Virus record (IMG/VR): IMGVR_UViG_3300033146_005641
Span: 55,352-119,351 of that record
Reading direction: 5' to 3' (one strand)
Length of the DNA stretch: 64,000 nt
Origin: a virus
The notes below the pieces were generated by a model, which ran no database searches, had not been told where the DNA came from, and saw only the letters and a list, made by a program, of their open reading frames with translations. The position numbers and the translations under genes are program-made. Shown piece after piece: positions 23,491 through 55,146 of this stretch. Every line of letters begins with the position of its first letter. Position 1 is the first letter of the stretch.

Positions 23491-24438
23491 ATGACAAAAA
23501 CACCTATTTCTAAAAACGAAAAAGAAAAAATATTTGTAGAGAGATATAGACCTAGAACTATAAAAGATATAATCCTACCTAAGGAAATGAAAGAGTCTCT
23601 TTTAGAGTGGAAAAGAGAGGGTCAAATTCCTAATCTATTATTAATTTCTAAAGCACCGGGATTAGGTAAGACCTCTCTAGCTCACGTTATAGCTAACGAA
23701 TTAGATGCTGAGATTAAGTTTATTAATGCATCTCTAGAAAGTAATATTGATTTATTGAGAGAATCTATTAAAGGATTTGTAACTACCGCAGGATGGGATA
23801 ATAGACCTAAAATTGTAGTTCTTGATGAGGCTGACGGCTTGAATGAAAGAACTACTCAACCTGCTCTAAGAGCGTTTATTGAAGAGTTTTCTAAAAGCGC
23901 TAGGTTTATTTTAACAGCTAATAATCAAAATAAAATCATAGAACCCTTACAGGATAGATTAATGGATTATGACTTTGATAAGATGTTTAATGAAAATAAG
24001 ACTCTTATCAAGGATATTTATTTAAGATGTGAGTCTATTTTAGAGGAAGAAGATATTGAGTATAATAAAGAAGACCTAAAATATCTAGTAAAACACTATT
24101 TTCCATCGCAAAGAAGTATTGTAATGAAATTACAACAATTTACTACTAATGGTGTTTTAAAAATTAACCATTCTGAAATGAATATTGATGGTGTTTTAGC
24201 TGATATTAGAAAATTAGTCGTATCGAAAGACTTTGAAAAGATTAGAGAATTAATAACTGAAATTTCAGATCCTTCACTAATATTTTCGAATTTTTATGAA
24301 CACCTAGATGAGTTTGAAAAATCTAAAAGACCGGGTGTAGTTTTAACAATAGCTAAATATCAATCATATGATAGTTTAGTAAGAGATAGAGTTATCAATG
24401 TTATGGCATGTTTAACGGAGATGATGCAATTTTTATAA
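23491..24438 (+). CDS. 44: Sliding-clamp loader large subunit (T4 gp44)
   Basis: 315 residues (T4 gp44 has 319). It is an AAA+ ATPase that opens and loads the gp45 clamp on DNA. The start FVERYRPRTIKDIILPKEMK (~10-29) is the gp44/RFC signature. Walker A is APGLGKTS (~55-62), Walker B VVLDEADG (~109-116), sensor 1 FILTANNQNKII (~146-157), and a sensor 2/SRC-like PSQRSIVMKL (~210-219). It is followed by a filament-protein gene, not by gp62 and regA as in T4. Confidence 0.93.
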   Translation: MTKTPISKNEKEKIFVERYRPRTIKDIILPKEMKESLLEWKREGQIPNLLLISKAPGLGKTSLAHVIANELDAEIKFINASLESNIDLLRESIKGFVTTAGWDNRPKIVVLDEADGLNERTTQPALRAFIEEFSKSARFILTANNQNKIIEPLQDRLMDYDFDKMFNENKTLIKDIYLRCESILEEEDIEYNKEDLKYLVKHYFPSQRSIVMKLQQFTTNGVLKINHSEMNIDGVLADIRKLVVSKDFEKIRELITEISDPSLIFSNFYEHLDEFEKSKRPGVVLTIAKYQSYDSLVRDRVINVMACLTEMMQFL

Positions 24439-24450
24439 AAGGAGAGATGA

Positions 24451-25365
24451 ATGAATTTACCGATAGGTATTGATGTAGGATATAGTTCTACAAAGGTTAG
24501 ATATAACGAAAAGAACGTGAGGTTTCCAACAGCCATTTGTTTTGCTACAGATGTAGGTACATCTTTCGGAGAAGAGGATGTTTATGAATTTGAAGGTGAT
24601 AAGTATTATGTAGGAAAGGATGCTGTAGGTCAAGAAACCTTTAGTACTACAGATTATAAATTCTTATATAAATTTGCACCTTTAATTATTTATCATATTC
24701 TCAAAAAATTTGACGAACATAATCTATCTAAACCTGTAGAAGTAGTAACAGGACTTGCTATTACTGATTGGGATAAAAGAGAGGAATTTAAAGAAAGAAT
24801 TTCTAATTTTGAGATTAATGATGAATCGGTAGAATTAAAGGTATCTCTAATTCCTCAAGGTGCGGGAGTGATTTTAGATTATGTGTATAATCAGAATGGT
24901 GGTAGTTTTCCTGAAAGAATTTCTGCTGTAGATATTGGTCATAATACTATTAATTTTTTAAGTTATAAAAATGGTAAGCCTATTAGAAATGAGATTAACG
25001 GATATCCTGGTCATGGTGTGACTAGTATTCTTAAACCATTTACAAAATTTTTAGAAAATAAGTTCTCTTTAAGTTTTTCAGAACAAGAGGCTATTGGAAT
25101 TTTCCAAAAAGGTACCTTTAGATATAATGGTGAGCTACAAGAAGATGTAAGTGAAAAAATTACAGAGATTAAATCTCAATTTATTAAAAAACTATTTAAT
25201 AGTGTTTTAGTTAATGATAAAAAGATTATGGGAATGAGTGATGTTGTTCTCCTGGCAGGCGGTGGTAGCCTTTTATTAGAAGATGTAAATTTCCCTTCGA
25301 ATGTATTTAAGGTAGAAGAACCGGTGTTTGCAAACGTTAGAGGATATATGGTAGGTAAAGAATAG
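24451..25365 (+). CDS. ParM/StbA-like actin-family ATPase
   Basis: 304 residues, a usual ParM length (~320). Actin-fold landmarks are phosphate-1 GIDVGYSSTKVRY (~6-18), phosphate-2 AVDIGHNTINFL (~160-171) and the adenosine loop LLAGGGSLLL (~267-276). ParM-type proteins form dynamic filaments that segregate plasmid DNA through a ParR adaptor. The next gene encodes a 93-residue protein that would fit as adaptor. In a lytic phage such filaments may place or move DNA in the cell. The ATG follows AAAGGAGAGATGA. Confidence 0.85.
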   Translation: MNLPIGIDVGYSSTKVRYNEKNVRFPTAICFATDVGTSFGEEDVYEFEGDKYYVGKDAVGQETFSTTDYKFLYKFAPLIIYHILKKFDEHNLSKPVEVVTGLAITDWDKREEFKERISNFEINDESVELKVSLIPQGAGVILDYVYNQNGGSFPERISAVDIGHNTINFLSYKNGKPIRNEINGYPGHGVTSILKPFTKFLENKFSLSFSEQEAIGIFQKGTFRYNGELQEDVSEKITEIKSQFIKKLFNSVLVNDKKIMGMSDVVLLAGGGSLLLEDVNFPSNVFKVEEPVFANVRGYMVGKE

Positions 25366-25477
25366 TTTATTAAAAAAATTCTCCTAATCCATATTTAAGA
25401 ATGTATTTAGAAGATGATGAGTCTTTATTTTCTATTATATATTCAGGATGGTATGAATTAACATAAAAGGAAGCAAA

Positions 25478-25759
25478 ATGGCAAAGAGTACAAACGTAGA
25501 ATTAGACGATATTAGTTTAAATATTTTAAAACAGGTTGACGGTGTTCATAGAAACTCTCTAATCAATTTAGGAATTATTGCAATTTCTAAAACAGAATAT
25601 TTTAAAAGTCTTACAGGTAATCCTTCAGAAGATATTTCTAAAATTGTAGACCTTAATGATGCAGTAAGTAATACAAATAATATAAAAGAAGAAACTACTC
25701 CGCAAAGTTCTAATAAAAGAAGTAAACCTTCAATTGATATCGGATTTGATGACTTTTAA
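25478..25759 (+). CDS. Possible ParR-like adaptor of the ParM filament
   Basis: 93 residues. The first ~50 (LDDISLNILKQVDGVHRNSL, then INLGIIAIS) could be a small helical DNA-binding domain. The rest is a disordered Ser/Asn/Glu tail ending in a short conserved-looking motif, PSIDIGFDDF. ParR proteins have this layout: N-terminal DNA-binding domain and a flexible C-terminal tail that caps the ParM filament. No obvious direct-repeat centromere is seen in the 112 bases between the two genes. The function is inferred from position and layout. Confidence 0.5.
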   Translation: MAKSTNVELDDISLNILKQVDGVHRNSLINLGIIAISKTEYFKSLTGNPSEDISKIVDLNDAVSNTNNIKEETTPQSSNKRSKPSIDIGFDDF

Positions 25760-25839
25760 ACAATCGGCCACTCTTAAAGAGTTTGGTAAAGAGCTTCGAG
25801 ATGAGGCTTGCCGAAAATATTTTTAAGGAGGTAGGTGAG

Positions 25840-26235
25840 ATGCTTACAACACAAGACTTAATGAAAGATTTGGAATGGTTGCTTGACGTTCCTGCAGGTA
25901 AGGAGCCGAGAAGATATCCTTTAACTAATATTAGTTATGATGACAATAAGGTTTTTGTAGACGTAGCTGTAGCGGGTTTTGGACCTGATGATATTGATAT
26001 TGAATTAGAGGGAGATACTCTAATCATTACAGGCGAAAAATCTGAAGAAAAGTTTGATGAGGATCGTCAATTTGTTCAAAAACATATTAGTTCAGAATCT
26101 TTCGAAAGAAAAATCAAACTTCATCCCGACTTTGTAAGTGGAGATATTTCTGCTACTTATAAAAACGGAATTTTAGGAATTTCAATTACTAAAAAAGAAA
26201 AGCCTAAAAAACTTATTTCTATAGTATCTGAATAA
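25840..26235 (+). CDS. Small heat-shock protein, Hsp20/alpha-crystallin family
   Basis: 131 residues from the ATG at 25840, which follows AAGGAGGTAGGTGAG, the strongest Shine-Dalgarno in the window. An upstream in-frame start at 25783 would add 19 residues but lacks such a site. The alpha-crystallin domain runs from ~34: VDVAVAGFGPDDIDIELEGD (~43-62), TLIITGEKS (~63-71), FERKIKLHPDF (~89-99) and the GILGISITK end (~113). Hsp20 genes are known in T4-like cyanophages, where they probably help folding of phage proteins. A UUCG terminator follows. Confidence 0.93.
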   Translation: MLTTQDLMKDLEWLLDVPAGKEPRRYPLTNISYDDNKVFVDVAVAGFGPDDIDIELEGDTLIITGEKSEEKFDEDRQFVQKHISSESFERKIKLHPDFVSGDISATYKNGILGISITKKEKPKKLISIVSE

Positions 26236-26242
26236 ATTTTAG

Positions 26243-26260
26243 AGTCCTCTTCGGAGGATT
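26243..26260 (+). terminator. Hairpin terminator with UUCG tetraloop after hsp20
   Basis: AGTCCTC, loop TTCG, GAGGATT, followed after eight bases by TTTATTTGTTTTT. C(UUCG)G is an unusually stable tetraloop. Confidence 0.85.
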
Positions 26261-26276
26261 CGTAAATTTATTTGTT

Positions 26277-26299
26277 TTTAAGTTAGCTTATACTATAAT
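26277..26299 (+). promoter_or_regulatory. Early-type promoter, full consensus
   Basis: TTTAAGTTAG at 26277, TATAAT at 26294-26299, and the full leader AAAGAGAAAAGGATAGAAAG before the ATG at 26329. Confidence 0.85.
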
Positions 26300-26328
26300 A
26301 TATTATATAAAGAGAAAAGGATAGAAAG

Positions 26329-26982
26329 ATGAAAGTTATAGAAGATATAAGTACTCTAAAAAAATGGGAAGATAGAATAGAAGAAAGTGATTCATATATT
26401 CCTATTAGAACAACGGATATTATTGAAAAGTTAGATTATGAAGTTTTAGTAATTTATTCTTTTTCAAAAACATATCACGGTGTAACACTTTATGATGATA
26501 ACGCTAATAAAATTCTAATAGAAAATAGCTATAAAAAAGAAAGAGCTTTTAGATTATCATTATATTCTAATGGTATGTTTATACCCTTAGGTCTTGAAAA
26601 AATCGTTCATAGAGGTGAGCGAGCTAAAACGTTTTCAGAAATTGATAAAGTAGCGTTGAGTGAAGCTATAATATCCCGAAAAAATACTATAGAAAAAATG
26701 AAAAAAGTTCCAATATCAGAATCGGTTGAAAAAGAAATTATGAATATTATATTCGGTAACAGAGAAATTGATTTAAAAGAAGACGAAAATAACCTCGTAA
26801 GAGATAATTTGGCCGATTTTATCGAGGATGTTTTATATATATACTTAACAGGTAGTTATCTTATCGTAAAAAAAGATAAAACTCGTAAAGGTAGAGTAAA
26901 GAAAAATATCAGATATCTTTTATCATTGTCTACTAAATTATATAAAACCGTTTATAAAAATTATCCATTTATCTTTATTTAA
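26329..26982 (+). CDS. Early protein of unknown function
   Basis: 217 residues with the standard early promoter and leader. A mixed alpha/beta N-terminal half includes YEVLVIYSFSKTYHGVTLYD (~45-64), a central helix-rich part with many Lys and Glu, and a basic C-terminus. There are no membrane segments and no motif I recognise. It is the first of a run of early genes leading to primase. Confidence 0.7.
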   Translation: MKVIEDISTLKKWEDRIEESDSYIPIRTTDIIEKLDYEVLVIYSFSKTYHGVTLYDDNANKILIENSYKKERAFRLSLYSNGMFIPLGLEKIVHRGERAKTFSEIDKVALSEAIISRKNTIEKMKKVPISESVEKEIMNIIFGNREIDLKEDENNLVRDNLADFIEDVLYIYLTGSYLIVKKDKTRKGRVKKNIRYLLSLSTKLYKTVYKNYPFIFI

Positions 26983-27017
26983 TAAATATTAAATATAATA
27001 TATTATAGGGAGAGTAA

Positions 27018-27185
27018 ATGGGTTTAAGTAGAGAAGATATTCTGAACGAGCTATCGGTTTTATATCAACTAATTTCTAAGTTTAGACTAGGAGATGAGTT
27101 TAAAAAAGATGTGGATGACATTCGAAGTCAAATCATTGAGCTACAAGAAATATTGATAGCCTTAGAAAGGAAAAAAGATGAATGA
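27018..27185 (+). CDS. Small early protein, 55 residues
   Basis: ATG at 27018 after TAGGGAGAGTAA. The protein starts MGLSREDILNELSVLYQLIS and is helical and acidic, ending LIALERKKDE. It overlaps the next gene by eight bases (ATGAATGA), a sign of coupled translation. Heptad-like Leu and Ile suggest a small coiled coil. The family is unknown. Confidence 0.65.
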   Translation: MGLSREDILNELSVLYQLISKFRLGDEFKKDVDDIRSQIIELQEILIALERKKDE

Positions 27186-27414
27186 GGATTATATGTTCGG
27201 AAACCCGGATGAATTAAGTGAGGCTATTAAAAGAAACGAGAAAATAGCATTAGAACAAGGAGTAGATATGAAGCCACCTCCTGGTTCTGTAGGGTTGAGT
27301 GATTTTACTAAAAGGATTAGTGAAAACTCAAACGTAGAGGATAGATTATGGAAAATAATTTTTGACTTAATAGAGGAGATTAAGGTTTTAAAAGGAGAAA
27401 AGAATGATCAATAA
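27178..27414 (+). CDS. Small early protein of unknown function
   Basis: 78 residues, preceded by AAGGAAAAAAG and overlapping the upstream stop. It has a Pro-rich middle (DMKPPPGSVGLSDF, ~25-38) and a helical C-terminus LIEEIKVLKGEK. It overlaps the next gene by 11 bases. No family is recognised. Confidence 0.65.
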   Translation: MNEDYMFGNPDELSEAIKRNEKIALEQGVDMKPPPGSVGLSDFTKRISENSNVEDRLWKIIFDLIEEIKVLKGEKNDQ

Positions 27415-27613
27415 AAACGATAAAGTAAAGATTTATGAGGGTAATAAAGAGACCGATGATTTAACAGGTCTTATTTTTGACGTTAATATAGATGAATTGA
27501 AAAAATTTAATCATAACTTTGAAAAGTTTTATTATGTTATAGAGGGTTTAGATATTAGAGATGAAAAACTTTTTGATAAAACTATTAAAAGGTTAAATAT
27601 GTCTAATCATTAA
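27404..27613 (+). CDS. Small early protein of unknown function
   Basis: 69 residues after AAAAGGAGAAAAGA. It starts MINKNDKVKIYEGNKETDDL and may be a small beta-barrel (KVKIYEG, LIFDVNID, FYYVIEGLD) of the SH3/KOW sort. That guess is from strand pattern only. It lies between two small genes and primase in one early unit. Confidence 0.6.
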   Translation: MINKNDKVKIYEGNKETDDLTGLIFDVNIDELKKFNHNFEKFYYVIEGLDIRDEKLFDKTIKRLNMSNH

Positions 27614-27634
27614 AGTTTTAATGGAGGAGGAAAA

Positions 27635-28636
27635 GTGGTTTTAAATGAGCTTTCTAAAAAATACTTTAAACTAGTTACTAAAAATAAGAAATCAGAATCA
27701 CCTAGTAGAATCACATGTAATTGTATAATGTGTGGTGATGAGAAAAATAGATTATCTTTAAGTGCTGTTAATGATGAGGTTGGAGTTTGTCGTTGTTTTA
27801 ATGCAGGATGTGTTCTAAACGATCACGCACTACCATTTCCTGCTTTTTTAAAATTAGCTAATGTAACGCTATATGAAAGATATAGAAGAGAAAAATTTAA
27901 TAAAAATTTAAATAGTGATAGTAATCTAAATAGTCTATTAGGTAATAAGAAAGACGAGAAGACTAAAAAATATGAACATATTAAAGAAGAAAATATAAAT
28001 CTTCCGGATGCTTTTGGTAAATTATTGTCATTGAAAGAAGCAACCAGGGCTAGAGAATATGTTGAAAATAGATGTGTTTCTGAAGAGATATATAAAAACT
28101 GGTATTTTTCTAAAGAAGCATTTATTAGAGTATTAGATAAAAAATATTTCGTTCTTAATTACTTATTCATACCTATCATACAAAATAATAAACTTTCAGG
28201 TTTTTATACTCGTTCAATAGAAGAAAAGAGATTTAGCACTATTCTTTTTCCTAATAGAGAAAAGTTCTGGAGTTCTGACTCTATACTAGCTAAAGAATAC
28301 ACCTATTATATTTTTGAAGGTATTTTTGACGCTTTAAGCTCTGGATTTGAACATGTAATAGCTATGCTATCGGCTGATCTTAGTGAAGAAGTTTTAGAAA
28401 AAATAGAAAAACCTATATTTGTATTTGATAATGATGAAACCGGTAGAAATAAATCCATTAAAGAAGCTGAAAATAATAATAAAGTTTTTATATGGCCTAA
28501 AGAATGGGATGATTTTAAAGATATGAACGAGGTATTATGTTCAGGAGTTTCTAGAAAGGATATTCAAAAGACTATCAATTCTAATATTTCTGAAGGTATG
28601 ATAGCTATTATTAAATTAAAATCTAAAAAAATTTAA
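27635..28636 (+). CDS. 61: DNA primase (T4 gp61)
   Basis: 333 residues (T4 gp61 has 342) from a GTG start after GGAGGAGGAAAA. An N-terminal zinc site is formed by Cys at ~28, 30 and 33 (CNCIMC) and ~52, 54 and 59 (CRCFNAGC). The TOPRIM core follows with FEGIFDALSSG (~227-237) and FVFDNDETGRN (~262-272), and the DMNEV acidic motif near ~293. It makes RNA primers at the fork together with the gp41 helicase, which is not in the window. Confidence 0.9.
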   Translation: MVLNELSKKYFKLVTKNKKSESPSRITCNCIMCGDEKNRLSLSAVNDEVGVCRCFNAGCVLNDHALPFPAFLKLANVTLYERYRREKFNKNLNSDSNLNSLLGNKKDEKTKKYEHIKEENINLPDAFGKLLSLKEATRAREYVENRCVSEEIYKNWYFSKEAFIRVLDKKYFVLNYLFIPIIQNNKLSGFYTRSIEEKRFSTILFPNREKFWSSDSILAKEYTYYIFEGIFDALSSGFEHVIAMLSADLSEEVLEKIEKPIFVFDNDETGRNKSIKEAENNNKVFIWPKEWDDFKDMNEVLCSGVSRKDIQKTINSNISEGMIAIIKLKSKKI

Positions 28637-28642
28637 TATATA

Positions 28643-28665
28643 TGTAAGTATTTTTATTATATAAT
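28643..28665 (+). promoter_or_regulatory. Early-type promoter
   Basis: TGTAAGTATT at 28643 and TATAAT at 28660-28665, then AATAGGAG before the ATG at 28684. Confidence 0.7.
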
Positions 28666-28683
28666 ATACTAATAGGAGAGAAA

Positions 28684-28920
28684 ATGAAAATAAAAGTAAA
28701 AGACGAGATGAATGATATTCGTATTAAAATATCTCATAAAGAACTAGTTATATTGAAAGAAGCGTTATATTCATATAATATTCTTAATGATGATATAAAA
28801 GATCTTAATGTTCAATTATTTGATAGGGATGAAATGAGAGATAGTACAGACGTTGAAAGAACCGTCCTTAAAATATATTCAAAAATCCAGAATAAATTGC
28901 TAGAAATTAACCCATTTTAA
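28684..28920 (+). CDS. Small early protein of unknown function
   Basis: 78 residues with a strong AATAGGAGAGAAA leader. Charged and helical (SHKELVILKEALYSYNILND, ~19-38). It is the first gene of an operon that leads to the Cas4-like nuclease. No family is recognised. Confidence 0.65.
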   Translation: MKIKVKDEMNDIRIKISHKELVILKEALYSYNILNDDIKDLNVQLFDRDEMRDSTDVERTVLKIYSKIQNKLLEINPF

Positions 28921-44801: not shown

Positions 44802-45089
44802 ATGGAGAATCAAAAAACAGTAAATAAGAAAAAGATGCAAAAGCATATTAAAATTAATCATAGTATTGACGCTATCGGTAATAGTAGAGTATATACACTA
44901 CAAAAAAGAACAGTGGCTCTTCACGAGTATTTCGGTACTAATAAAAATGAACGAAAAGAAAAAGTAGAAAAAGTTAGAAATTTTATATTCAGCGGTGCTG
45001 TAGAAAGCGGCCTCGAAGAAATATCTGTAGAGTTTAATAAAGCAGAAAACGAGATTAACAAAAGACTAGATCATCTTATTAATCAATGA
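44802..45089 (+). CDS. Early protein of unknown function
   Basis: 95 residues. Lys-rich start (MENQKTVNKKKMQKHIKINH) and helical C-terminal half (EISVEFNKAENEINKRLDHL). The middle (SRVYTLQKRTVALHEYFG, ~28-45) may be a short DNA-binding segment, but this is only an impression. It overlaps the P-loop kinase gene by four bases (ATGA). Confidence 0.6.
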   Translation: MENQKTVNKKKMQKHIKINHSIDAIGNSRVYTLQKRTVALHEYFGTNKNERKEKVEKVRNFIFSGAVESGLEEISVEFNKAENEINKRLDHLINQ

Positions 45090-45580
45090 AAGTTATTAAT
45101 TTATATGGAGGACCCGGTGTAGGAAAATCTACTATAGCTGCAGGCCTTTTCTATGAAATGAAAAAGCTAGGCTATAAAGCAGAATTAATAACAGAATTCG
45201 CTAAAGATCTAGTGTATTCTGAAGATAGTACCAGACTATCGGATCAGCTTTTAGTATTTGCTGAACAACATCATAAAATATTTAGACTAAAAGATAAAGT
45301 AGACTATATTATAACCGATAGTCCTCTAAATCTTTCTATCATTTATAATCATTCTACAGATAAAGAAATATATAAAGAAATATTTAATACTGTTTTTAAT
45401 AGCTATGAGAATATTAATTTTTTTATAGAAAGAAATGATAGTTTTTTTCAGGAATACGGAAGAATACATAGTTTAGAGCAATCTAAATCGTTAGATAAAG
45501 AGATTCGTCAAATATTAGATAATTACTATTCTATTAATTTAGAAAGTGAGCCTATTAAAAAGATATTAGGATTAATTTGA
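45086..45580 (+). CDS. P-loop ATPase/nucleoside or nucleotide kinase-like protein (AAA_28 type)
   Basis: 164 residues. Walker A GGPGVGKSTIA (~8-18) near the N-terminus, EFAKDLVYSEDST (~37-49), DQLLVFAEQHHKIFRLKD (~53-70), YIITDSPLNLSIIYNH (~73-88, Walker B-like) and IERNDSFFQEYGRIHSLEQS (~112-131, lid). This is the pattern of the AAA_28/NadR-like kinase family that is frequent in T4-like phages. Substrate unknown: ribosylnicotinamide or a nucleoside are possible. Confidence 0.75.
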   Translation: MKVINLYGGPGVGKSTIAAGLFYEMKKLGYKAELITEFAKDLVYSEDSTRLSDQLLVFAEQHHKIFRLKDKVDYIITDSPLNLSIIYNHSTDKEIYKEIFNTVFNSYENINFFIERNDSFFQEYGRIHSLEQSKSLDKEIRQILDNYYSINLESEPIKKILGLI

Positions 45581-49910: not shown

Positions 49911-50666
49911 ATGAATATTAAACAATTTGTAAAAGAAAGATATCTTAAACAAGGCTTTAAAAATTTTAATAAATCTTGGAAAGAATATGAAGAAATTCGT
50001 AATTTCGCTCCAAACGGTAACGTTTTTGAAGGTGATAAGGGTGTTTCAGACGAGGCTCATTTTATTATGAGAATGTGTACTCAATACTATTTAACTAAAG
50101 CCTTCGAAGCTATGAAGATCGACCTATCTGATGATAATGTATCTGAAAACCTTGACGAGGGAAATATTGGAACACCAGGAAGAATTGCAAAAGTTTGGAC
50201 AGGATTTGACACACACGACGATATGGAATTAGGAGGAGGTAGATGGAATAGAAAACCAAGATTAGCAAGTTTTCCAAATACAGGGAATTCTAATATTCCT
50301 ATTACCAAAAGAGTAGATATTGTTTCTAACTGTTCTCATCATTTCATTCCGTTTCACACGTTAGCAAGGCCCGATTCTTACGCTATTATTAGTTATATTC
50401 CCGATAAAAAAGTTTTAGGAATTTCTAAGCTTCAGAGGGTTGCTAATTGGGTTTCTCAAAGATTTTGGCTTCAAGAAGATTTAACTAAAGCTCTATACGA
50501 GGAAATAGCTGAAGTAGCAGAAACGAATAGTGTTTATGTAGGTTTGTATAACGTAGTTCACGGTTGTGAAAGTCTTAGAGGTGCTAAAAGTAACGACGGA
50601 GCGTTTACGAGTGAATATTATGGTGGAGCTTTTGAAGATCCTGAATTGAGGAGACAAATTGTATGA
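49911..50666 (+). CDS. folE: GTP cyclohydrolase I (FolE)
   Basis: 251 residues. It turns GTP into 7,8-dihydroneopterin triphosphate, the first step for folate and for 7-deazaguanines. Features: TPGRIAKVWTGF (~88-99), the zinc site NCSHHFIPFHTLARPDSYAI (~140-159; Cys141, His144), YIPDKKVLGISKLQRVANWV (~163-182) and NVVHGCESLRGAKSND (~213-228; His217 and Cys219). It heads a cluster with queD, so a role in DNA base modification is more likely than folate supply. A 28-residue gene overlaps its end. Confidence 0.93.
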   Translation: MNIKQFVKERYLKQGFKNFNKSWKEYEEIRNFAPNGNVFEGDKGVSDEAHFIMRMCTQYYLTKAFEAMKIDLSDDNVSENLDEGNIGTPGRIAKVWTGFDTHDDMELGGGRWNRKPRLASFPNTGNSNIPITKRVDIVSNCSHHFIPFHTLARPDSYAIISYIPDKKVLGISKLQRVANWVSQRFWLQEDLTKALYEEIAEVAETNSVYVGLYNVVHGCESLRGAKSNDGAFTSEYYGGAFEDPELRRQIV

Positions 50667-50749
50667 AAATAGATGGAAATAATCTATCTGAAATTGCATG
50701 TAATATAGTAGACGATTTTACACCATTTAAACTAAATAAAGGAAAATAA
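50663..50749 (+). CDS. 28-residue protein between folE and queD
   Basis: ATG at 50663 overlaps the folE stop (ATGA) after GAGGAGACAAATTGT, and the stop at 50747-50749 abuts the queD ATG. MKIDGNNLSEIACNIVDDFT and then PFKLNKGK. It may simply couple translation of the two enzymes. No match known. Confidence 0.5.
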   Translation: MKIDGNNLSEIACNIVDDFTPFKLNKGK

Positions 50750-51352
50750 ATGAAATATATTATCGATAAATCGTTTTCGTTCTGTTATGGACATAGAGTT
50801 CATAACCAGCGTTTAGATACAAAGTTTACAGAAAGTGGAGATGCCTGCCTAGCCTGTCGTCACTTACACGGACATGAAGGTTTAGTAAAGATCTTTTTAG
50901 AAGAAGATAAAAATAGTACGAATATTAAAGATACAGGAATGGTAACAGACTTTAAACATCTCGGATGGTTTAAGAATTTTCTAGATGATGTGTTAGATCA
51001 TAAATTTATTATGGATTTAGAAGATCCGCTATTTCAAAATGAATTTACCTTATGTCAAAATAAATCAAATATGATTAAGATGAAAGAAGAGTTTTTCATT
51101 CCGGATTTGACATATATTAGAAACCATATTCAACAAGAACTAGAAAATGATCGCATTAATGAGAACGAAGCATCAGCAATTTTTGAAAAATACGAAGGTG
51201 CTATTTTTGTAGATTTTGTTCCTACATCAGAAAACCTATCAGGATGGTTACTTTCAATAGTTCAAGAAAAAATGAAAGATCTACCAGGAATTAGAGTAAA
51301 AGCAATTGAATATTGGGAAACCCCAAAATCGCATTGTAGAGTAGAGGCATAG
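50750..51352 (+). CDS. queD: 6-carboxytetrahydropterin synthase (QueD)
   Basis: 200 residues, longer than a typical QueD (~120) because of an insertion. Zinc and catalytic features: FCYGHRVHNQRL (~11-22; first His), CLACRHLHGHEGLVKI (~38-53; catalytic Cys and two His), TDFKHLGWFKNFLDDVLDHK (~67-86) and FVPTSENLSGWLLSIVQEKM (~156-175; PTxEN motif) with EYWETPKSHCRVEA at the end. It makes CPH4, the second step towards preQ0. The ~40-residue insertion (~95-140) is not typical. Confidence 0.92.
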   Translation: MKYIIDKSFSFCYGHRVHNQRLDTKFTESGDACLACRHLHGHEGLVKIFLEEDKNSTNIKDTGMVTDFKHLGWFKNFLDDVLDHKFIMDLEDPLFQNEFTLCQNKSNMIKMKEEFFIPDLTYIRNHIQQELENDRINENEASAIFEKYEGAIFVDFVPTSENLSGWLLSIVQEKMKDLPGIRVKAIEYWETPKSHCRVEA

Positions 51353-51353
51353 A

Positions 51354-51743
51354 ATGTCTCTGTACGGTGCTGATAGTGAGCCTAATATTTCTAATACTAA
51401 AAACGGTTGGAGAAATTGTAAAACAACAGGACCTATAGAAACTATATCTGTTAGAATGAACGTTTCTGATTTTGAACATACTCATGGATTCGACCACGAG
51501 AGACTAAAGATCGAGTTTGCTAATCAGATTTCAAGAGAAATTGTTAATTCAATAAACTTTAAAATGCGTAAAGAAAATTTTACAAAAACGACAATATATG
51601 AGGCTGATCTACACATAGTTAAAGAACCGAAATCTAAAAACTATATAATGGATAAAGAACACTTCGTATGGGAGGGTAAAACGTGGAATCAGGATGAAAT
51701 CATTGAAGCTTTAAAAATAGCATATCCTCATTACACTATTTAA
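51354..51743 (+). CDS. Unknown protein of the folE-queD cluster
   Basis: 129 residues, one base after queD. It starts MSLYGADSEPNISNTKNGWR. A beta/alpha core follows: ETISVRMNVSDFEHTHGFDH (~29-48), then EFANQISREIVNSINFKM. The remaining residues hold acidic and aromatic groups (DKEHFVWEGKTWNQDEIIEA). It is not QueE (no CxxxCxxC) or QueC. Its place suggests a part in the same modification pathway or its regulation. Confidence 0.65.
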   Translation: MSLYGADSEPNISNTKNGWRNCKTTGPIETISVRMNVSDFEHTHGFDHERLKIEFANQISREIVNSINFKMRKENFTKTTIYEADLHIVKEPKSKNYIMDKEHFVWEGKTWNQDEIIEALKIAYPHYTI

Positions 51744-52879: not shown

Positions 52880-53329
52880 ATGAGAGAAGATAAAACATAT
52901 ATTTATTATGAACATAACGACTATCTAGAAGATATCGAAAAATTTAAAAAATATTTAGATATTCATTCAGGTGATAAAAATATTCATATTATAGTTCCTA
53001 TGTTCGGAGCTCTACCCTTGGCGACTAAATTAAAAAATGTGTTAAAATGTAAGGTTAGTATAGTTAAAATGTCTAGGTATGGAGGTAATGATAAAAAAGC
53101 TTCTTGGATATATTTAGATGATGTTAGAGAAAACGATATTTTATATATTATAGATGATTTATATGATAAGGGTGTAACTATTAAACAAGTAAAAGACCTA
53201 GTACAAAAATCTTTTCCTAATAATGATATAAAAGCTATTACTATTTTTGGAAGGAAGAACTCACCAGATTATGTAAAATATTTTAGAGAGCATCCTGGAA
53301 AGTGGATAAAATTTGAAGATTGGGAATAG
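52880..53329 (+). CDS. Phosphoribosyltransferase
   Basis: 149 residues after AATAAGGAAAAATA. The PRPP-binding loop ILYIIDDLYDKGVTIKQVKD (~86-105) is clear, and IIVPMFGALPLATKLKNVLK (~37-56) gives the N-terminal strand-loop. It is close to the xanthine/hypoxanthine-guanine type. In a phage that may make 7-deazaguanine it could feed purine salvage, but the substrate cannot be read from sequence. Confidence 0.8.
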   Translation: MREDKTYIYYEHNDYLEDIEKFKKYLDIHSGDKNIHIIVPMFGALPLATKLKNVLKCKVSIVKMSRYGGNDKKASWIYLDDVRENDILYIIDDLYDKGVTIKQVKDLVQKSFPNNDIKAITIFGRKNSPDYVKYFREHPGKWIKFEDWE

Positions 53330-54475: not shown

Positions 54476-54534
54476 AAATATATATGATATAACAAGATTT
54501 ACACATCTTGATTATTCAACTCATTTTATCTGAT

Positions 54535-54557
54535 TTTAAGTCTCTTTATACTATAAT
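54535..54557 (+). promoter_or_regulatory. Early-type promoter, full consensus
   Basis: TTTAAGTCTC at 54535 and TATAAT at 54552-54557, then AAAGAGGGATAGAAGG before the ATG at 54583. Confidence 0.85.
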
Positions 54558-54582
54558 ATATTATATAAAGAGGGATAGAAGG

Positions 54583-55146
54583 ATGAAATTCAAGGATACT
54601 AAATATGGTGATTTAACGGGACAAACCTATAAAGGCGATATTAATGCAGAAGATTTAGGTCTAACTTCTCTAGAGGGGTCTCCGAAGGTTGTAGAAGGAA
54701 GTTTTTATTGCTTTAATAATCAACTAACCTCTTTAGAAGGTGCTCCAGAGGTAGTTAGAGGATATTTTGATTGTTCAAACAATCAACTAACTTCTCTAGA
54801 GGGAGGTCCCGGAGTGGTCGATGGTATTTTTTACTGTCATAGTAATCGATTATCTTCTCTAGAGGGGTCTCCAGAGGCAGTTAGAGGAGATTTTAGTTGC
54901 TCAGATAACAATTTAGCTTCTCTAGAAGGAGCTCCTAAGACAGTTAAAGGAGATTTTTATTGCTCTTACAACGAACTAACTTCTCTAGAGGGGGCTCCTG
55001 AGGTAGTTAGAGGTACGTTTTATTGTCATGAAAACAATCTAACTTCTCTAGAGGGAATACCTTATTATAAAAGAATAATAGCTGATTTTAGTAAACTAGA
55101 AGTTGATGATTATATGAAAGATAGGTTTCCTTATCATTTTATATGA
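54583..55146 (+). CDS. LRR-like repeat protein
   Basis: 187 residues from the ATG at 54583, just after the early leader. A 25-residue head (MKFKDTKYGDLTGQTYKGDI) is followed by six tandem 21-residue repeats of the form LTSLEGAPEVVRGxFxCxxNx (~27-152) and a seventh short one, then a C-terminal cap FSKLEVDDYMKDRFPYHFI. Regular Leu spacing indicates a leucine-rich-repeat-like or pentapeptide-like solenoid for protein binding. A shortened paralogue lies at 57006. Confidence 0.75.
   Translation: MKFKDTKYGDLTGQTYKGDINAEDLGLTSLEGSPKVVEGSFYCFNNQLTSLEGAPEVVRGYFDCSNNQLTSLEGGPGVVDGIFYCHSNRLSSLEGSPEAVRGDFSCSDNNLASLEGAPKTVKGDFYCSYNELTSLEGAPEVVRGTFYCHENNLTSLEGIPYYKRIIADFSKLEVDDYMKDRFPYHFI
54661..55038 (+). 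repeat. Six tandem 63-base repeats within the LRR-like gene
   Basis: Units start CTAACTTCTCTAGAGG or close variants every 63 bases. They are diverged but still alike enough for recombination. Confidence 0.85.

What the first reader, a model, noticed from the sequence alone, without database searches (positions are those of the whole stretch)
49911..51743. FolE-QueD cluster points to 7-deazaguanine DNA modification
folE, a 28-residue coupling gene, queD and an unknown 129-residue gene are packed with almost no spacing. FolE and QueD are the first two steps to preQ0. Campylobacter phages of the CP220 type are known to replace dG by a 7-deazaguanine derivative. The unknown fourth gene could be a new member of the pathway.
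Basis: partly seen in the sequence, partly recalled or inferred. Interest (0 to 1): 0.7.

Follow-up and report, generated by a model that had tools for sequence, protein, structure and literature searches.

The report
Phage gene set replacing DNA guanine

Summary
The gene layout is exactly as described; FolE and QueD are real and intact. It occurs in 15 CP220-type Campylobacter records and at least 341 virus contigs; of 45 long loci, 41 carry folE and 40 each queD and queE. It is very probably the inserting enzyme that 2019 papers could not find in these phages. From memory (paper not held), Cui et al. 2023 named a 'DpdA3' subfamily for complete guanine replacement; this is probably it, so the system is a new member of a known kind. 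The fourth gene is a real gene, but a Vibrio phage without FolE or QueD shares it: probably not a pathway gene. Open: which base is made, and why a kinase accompanies the transglycosylase.

The parts
49911..50666 (+). folE, GTP cyclohydrolase I
   Evidence: PF01227 8.5e-27, phrog_2197 2e-38; dN/dS about 0.04 against L020
50663..50749 (+). 28-aa ORF / conserved leader of queD (probably translational coupling or leader, not an enzyme)
   Evidence: overlaps folE stop; about 66 nt nearly identical in L020, where a 176-aa ORF intervenes
50750..51352 (+). queD, 6-carboxytetrahydropterin synthase (CxxxHGH motif)
   Evidence: PF01242 3.6e-23, phrog_2389 9.9e-29; TIGR03367 44 bits, below its 89-bit cut-off
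51354..51743 (+). 129-aa gene of unknown function; probably not part of the pathway
   Evidence: 84% identical in L020; weak homologues in Vibrio phages, of which phiKT1024 lacks FolE and QueD; AF2 model uninformative, pLDDT 40.8
52880..53329 (+). phosphoribosyltransferase-like gene; possible neighbour of the pathway (uncertain)
   Evidence: PF00156 7e-9; a PRTase gene is also in the Flavobacterium immuto cluster and near the TGT-like gene in 24 of 45 long loci by a two-sequence profile, 8 of 43 by clustering

Best explanation
The phage encodes a complete or near-complete pathway that makes a 7-deazaguanine base (FolE, QueD, QueE, QueC-like) and replaces guanine in its own DNA with it, by a small TGT-fold transglycosylase encoded in a second operon just upstream of the DNA polymerase. 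Most likely the enzyme works like TGT/DpdA: an Asp nucleophile displaces guanine and the 7-deazaguanine base is put in its place, on DNA after synthesis, giving a G-modified genome that resists host restriction. Shown here: the genes, the intact FolE and QueD motifs, the TGT fold of the family, its conserved linkage to que genes, and its presence in phages whose DNA is measured by others to be 100% dADG. Inferred: DNA as the substrate, the base inserted in this particular phage, the protective role.
For: FolE and QueD in the window. Second operon L012:4376-8782 = G000 24376-28782: HAD/NT5C nucleotidase, QueC-like (PF06508, 45.7 bits against a cut-off of 22), AAA_28 kinase, TGT-like 249 aa, QueE (phrog_2076 1.2e-56), dUTPase, then DNA polymerase B. 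TGT-like family: AF2 pLDDT 93.6 and pTM 0.91 on a 36-sequence alignment; leading Foldseek PDB matches all TGT or DpdA, DpdA 7ui4 at E 8.6e-7; VIA Z 18.0 (1iq8 arcTGT) and 17.5 (7ui4 DpdA). Invariant D52, D83, D206 (representative numbering; D51, D85, D196 in G000) in LDNS, PD and xDTS motifs; the DTS segment aligns with SIDSTTP of 7ui4, at a non-significant E of 1. G000's own member fits the profile at 2.9e-62, CP220's at 3.2e-83. Homologues in 15 Campylobacter phage records, Flavobacterium immuto (deposited as DpdA) and Cellulophaga phiST downstream of queD-queE-folE. 341 relatives in IMG/VR; of 45 loci of 15 kb or more, FolE 41, QueD 40, QueE 40, QueC 34. CP220/CPt10 DNA is 100% dADG (PMC8306585) although no DpdA was known there in 2019 (PMC6884629).
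Against: No chemistry for this phage. G000's QueC-like protein misses the GQxxxxE, YPDC/YWDC and last zinc-Cys motifs and scores 23 bits against the 150-bit QueC equivalog cut-off, so the final base is uncertain and host QueC may be needed. The structural model is of a relative about 41% identical (L024), not G000's own protein. The family does not match 9g DpdA or nt-1 DpdA2 by sequence. The conserved kinase is unexplained by a DNA-level reaction.
Confidence: 0.82

Rival explanations
1. Nucleotide-level route: the small TGT-like enzyme exchanges guanine on free dGMP or another deoxynucleotide, the nearby AAA kinase phosphorylates the product and the phage polymerase incorporates it; HAD/NT5C or MazG proteins remove normal dG nucleotides.
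For: Kinase family near the TGT-like gene in 32 of 43 non-redundant loci and still its direct neighbour in CP220, where the que genes are scattered, in CC_R7 (QueC, TGT-like, kinase, DNA polymerase) and in G000. The clusters of known DpdA/DpdA2 in 9g, nt-1 and CRB2 show no annotated kinase of this sort. The barrel is small (about 250-280 aa). 100% replacement would be natural for this route.
Against: From memory of the abstract of Crippen et al. 2019 (paper not held): no dADG phosphate was seen in infected cells. Similar kinases occur in Streptomyces phages that gave no TGT-like match, so the kinase may be a general one. Several loci, and phiST, have no such kinase nearby.
Confidence: 0.13
2. 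The genes only boost queuosine for host tRNA during infection.
For: FolE/QueD/QueE/QueC are the queuosine precursor enzymes; proposed in 2019 for phages lacking DpdA (PMC6884629). The fold also matches tRNA enzymes.
Against: Phages with the same TGT-like gene have fully modified DNA; the protein is much shorter than tRNA TGT; the gene lies close to DNA polymerase in G000 and CC_R7.
Confidence: 0.04
3. The fourth gene (129 aa) is a new enzyme of the pathway.
For: Tight spacing behind queD, purifying selection, kept in the same place in L020.
Against: Absent from the other clusters searched (0 of 80 loci); a homologue in phiKT1024, which has no FolE, QueD or TGT-like gene; no domain match.
Confidence: 0.05

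Closest known systems
Campylobacter Firehammerviruses CP220/CPt10 (100% dADG)
   Same: FolE, QueD, QueE, QueC family, TGT-like gp056 with adjacent kinase gp057; related T4-type capsid
   Different: Distant (FolE DNA about 67%, capsid 44% aa); CP220 scatters the genes and has a more typical QueC
DpdA family of DNA-guanine transglycosylases (7ui4 bacterial; 9g DpdA; nt-1 DpdA2)
   Same: TGT fold, conserved Asp motifs, que-gene neighbourhood
   Different: No significant sequence match; about 250-280 aa against 317-464 aa; kinase neighbour
DpdA3 subfamily (Cui et al. 2023, recalled from memory, paper not held)
   Same: Recalled as the subfamily allowing complete guanine replacement, found in phages that had lacked a DpdA
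   Different: Identity of the two families could not be checked here
Flavobacterium phage immuto and Cellulophaga phiST clusters
   Same: queD, queE, folE upstream of the same TGT-like family
   Different: Immuto adds QueF and a formyltransferase-like gene, absent from G000's operon
Stenotrophomonas phage Moby (QueC-like, TGT, QueE)
   Same: Among the closest annotated relatives of G000's divergent QueC-like protein, also beside a transglycosylase and QueE
   Different: Its transglycosylase is a longer queuine tRNA-ribosyltransferase-type protein that the family profile does not hit

Membership tests
Phage 7-deazaguanine DNA modification system | FolE | tested here: met
   PF01227 8.5e-27, over cut-off
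Phage 7-deazaguanine DNA modification system | QueD | tested here: met
   PF01242 3.6e-23, over cut-off; CxxxHGH
Phage 7-deazaguanine DNA modification system | QueE | tested here: met
   phrog_2076 1.2e-56 at G000 27323-28099; NCBIfam QueE models match below cut-off
Phage 7-deazaguanine DNA modification system | functional QueC | tested here: inconclusive
   PF06508 over cut-off, but QueC equivalog TIGR00364 not reached and motifs altered; the related contig L020 has a regular QueC
Phage 7-deazaguanine DNA modification system | transglycosylase that inserts the base | tested here: met
   TGT-fold family member in the genome, profile E 2.9e-62; presence only, activity not tested
Phage 7-deazaguanine DNA modification system | 7-deazaguanine in virion DNA | not testable with these tools
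   metagenomic virus; measured only in CP220/CPt10 (PMC8306585)
DpdA (DNA-guanine transglycosylase, TGT superfamily) | TGT fold | tested here: met
   Z 17.5 to DpdA 7ui4 over 230 residues, rmsd 3.1, for a family representative
DpdA (DNA-guanine transglycosylase, TGT superfamily) | catalytic Asp pair | tested here: inconclusive
   three invariant Asp at motif positions that fit; residue-level superposition not available
DpdA1 (9g) or DpdA2 (nt-1) subfamilies | sequence homology to the subfamily | tested here: not met
   no match of the family profile in the 9g and nt-1 genomes; profile comparison insignificant
DpdA3 subfamily | membership in the published DpdA3 set | not testable with these tools
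   Cui et al. 2023 not held
Genus Firehammervirus | genus-level nucleotide similarity | tested here: not met
   in the 6 kb tested, only short pieces of 66-77% identity, at most 7% coverage

The most novel reading that the evidence does not exclude
The transglycosylase of this family works on free deoxynucleotides and, with its conserved kinase neighbour, supplies a 7-deaza-dGTP to the phage polymerase; complete guanine replacement would then be a pre-replicative process, unlike every known DpdA. In G000 the divergent QueC-like protein could in addition give a base other than ADG or preQ0.
Probability: 0.14. Interest if true: 0.75.

Novelty: new member of a known kind. Interest (0 to 1): 0.4.

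Why it matters
Campylobacter phages of the CP220 type have every G replaced, which makes their DNA hard to cut and handle, and the 2019 reports found no inserting enzyme. The candidate is pinned here to one hypothetical protein (CP220 gp056, phrog_19058) that can be removed or assayed, and the phage in this window extends the system beyond the cultured Campylobacter phages, with a divergent QueC-like protein.

Tried and rejected
A PF01702 (TGT) search of the genome found nothing; only the operon context and the structural model revealed the transglycosylase. The NDT-like 137-aa protein at the head of the operon looked like a possible deoxyribosyltransferase, but PF05014 is only 0.032, its one near relative (L113) does not sit beside que genes, and the PDB search gives only chance-level glutathione peroxidase hits: not claimed. 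The idea that altered QueC motifs mark ADG-only enzymes was dropped because nt-1 (preQ0/G+) also has YWDC instead of YPDC. Folding the 129-aa gene gave pLDDT 40.8, no use. A second scan for its relatives found the same contig again. Profile comparison with 9g DpdA and nt-1 DpdA2 was insignificant.

Full report
Observation. FolE and QueD are confirmed by Pfam and PHROGs. Compared with the related contig L020, folE, queD and the 129-aa gene change mostly at third codon positions, with dN/dS well below 1. The 28-aa ORF is best seen as a conserved leader of queD: L020 has nearly the same 66 nt before queD, but with a 176-aa ORF between it and folE.

The genome. The window is bases 55352-119351 of a 183,351-bp virus record. 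Its DNA near the finding matches only Campylobacter phages, and distantly; its capsid protein is about 45% identical to Vibrio phages phiKT1024/pv27/Va1 and 44% to CP220. It is a remote relative of the Firehammerviruses, not a member in the stretch tested.

Rest of the pathway. A PF06508 protein lies at G000 25488-25853 and a QueE-like protein at 27320-28096. They are in one operon: NDT-like?, HAD/NT5C, QueC-like, AAA_28 kinase, 249-aa protein, QueE, small ORF, dUTPase, then DNA polymerase B. PF01702 gave no TGT.

The transglycosylase. The 249-aa protein has homologues in 15 Campylobacter phage records, never annotated beyond 'hypothetical', in Flavobacterium immuto (deposited as DpdA) and in Cellulophaga phiST. 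PHROGs calls the family unknown; one of 36 members also hits 'queuine tRNA-ribosyltransferase' at 3.7e-4. IMG/VR holds at least 341 relatives. An AlphaFold model of a representative (L024, 36-sequence alignment) has pLDDT 93.6; the leading PDB matches are TGT, with DpdA 7ui4 among them, and structural Z is 18.0 to arcTGT and 17.5 to DpdA. Three Asp are invariant in motifs that fit the TGT scheme, one aligning with the corresponding stretch of 7ui4 (not significant by itself). Linkage to the pathway is strong: of 45 loci of at least 15 kb, FolE 41, QueD 40, QueE 40, QueC 34; in a stricter set of 19 non-redundant loci with 4 kb on both sides, 16 have two or more of the four genes.

Meaning for CP220. 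Literature held here says CP220 and CPt10 DNA has 100% dADG (PMC8306585) and that such phages had no known DpdA in 2019, with dGTP-level or undetected deoxyribosyltransferase routes left open (PMC6884629). gp056 of CP220, with the kinase gp057 beside it, fits as the missing enzyme. I recall from the abstract of Cui et al. 2023 (NAR 51:9214) that a DpdA3 subfamily permits complete guanine replacement and that transglycosylases were then found in all such phages; the paper is cited by papers held here but is not itself held, so the identity with this family is unverified. On that recollection I rate the finding as a new member of a known kind.

What is left open. The kinase family is the commonest neighbour of the TGT-like gene (32 of 43 non-redundant loci; formyltransferase-like 30, QueF 29; Pfam identities), which a purely DNA-level exchange does not explain. 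Similar kinases also occur in phages that gave no TGT-like match. G000's QueC-like protein is divergent; relatives of it sit next to a transglycosylase and QueE in Stenotrophomonas phage Moby, so it may well belong to the pathway, with an uncertain product.

Fourth gene. One contig relative at 84% and weak hits in six Vibrio phages, the very phages whose capsid is closest. phiKT1024 has neither QueD nor FolE nor a TGT-like gene. The simplest reading is an inherited phage gene that happens to follow queD.

Noticed in passing
G000 131303-166630 (L004-L011): Eight strong radical SAM genes besides QueE in one phage genome; CP220 also has several. Function unknown.
   Followed up: no
L094:10798-11340 and neighbours: In 30 of 43 non-redundant loci a formyltransferase-like gene (PF00551) lies just downstream of the TGT-like gene, usually with QueF: points to formylated preQ1-type bases in those phages.
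   Followed up: partly
L036:6572-8231, L038:8765-10424: Two TGT-like paralogues in tandem.
   Followed up: no
window 45086-45580: A second AAA kinase-like gene, 4.3 kb upstream of folE; in L020 its counterpart follows queC-queE.
   Followed up: partly
window 50680-50749 and L020 9315-9396: About 66 nt before queD nearly identical between contigs whose QueD differs at 19% of residues: a possible regulatory or peptide leader.
   Followed up: partly
phages collection: OM293949, MH707430 and relatives, PV245944, MT161459: Weak homologues of the TGT-like family in Weizmannia, Bacillus, Chryseobacterium and Aeromonas phages, candidates for unrecognised guanine-modified DNA.
   Followed up: no
window 54508-55146: Leucine-rich-repeat-like protein with repeated NQLTSLEGAP units.
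   Followed up: no
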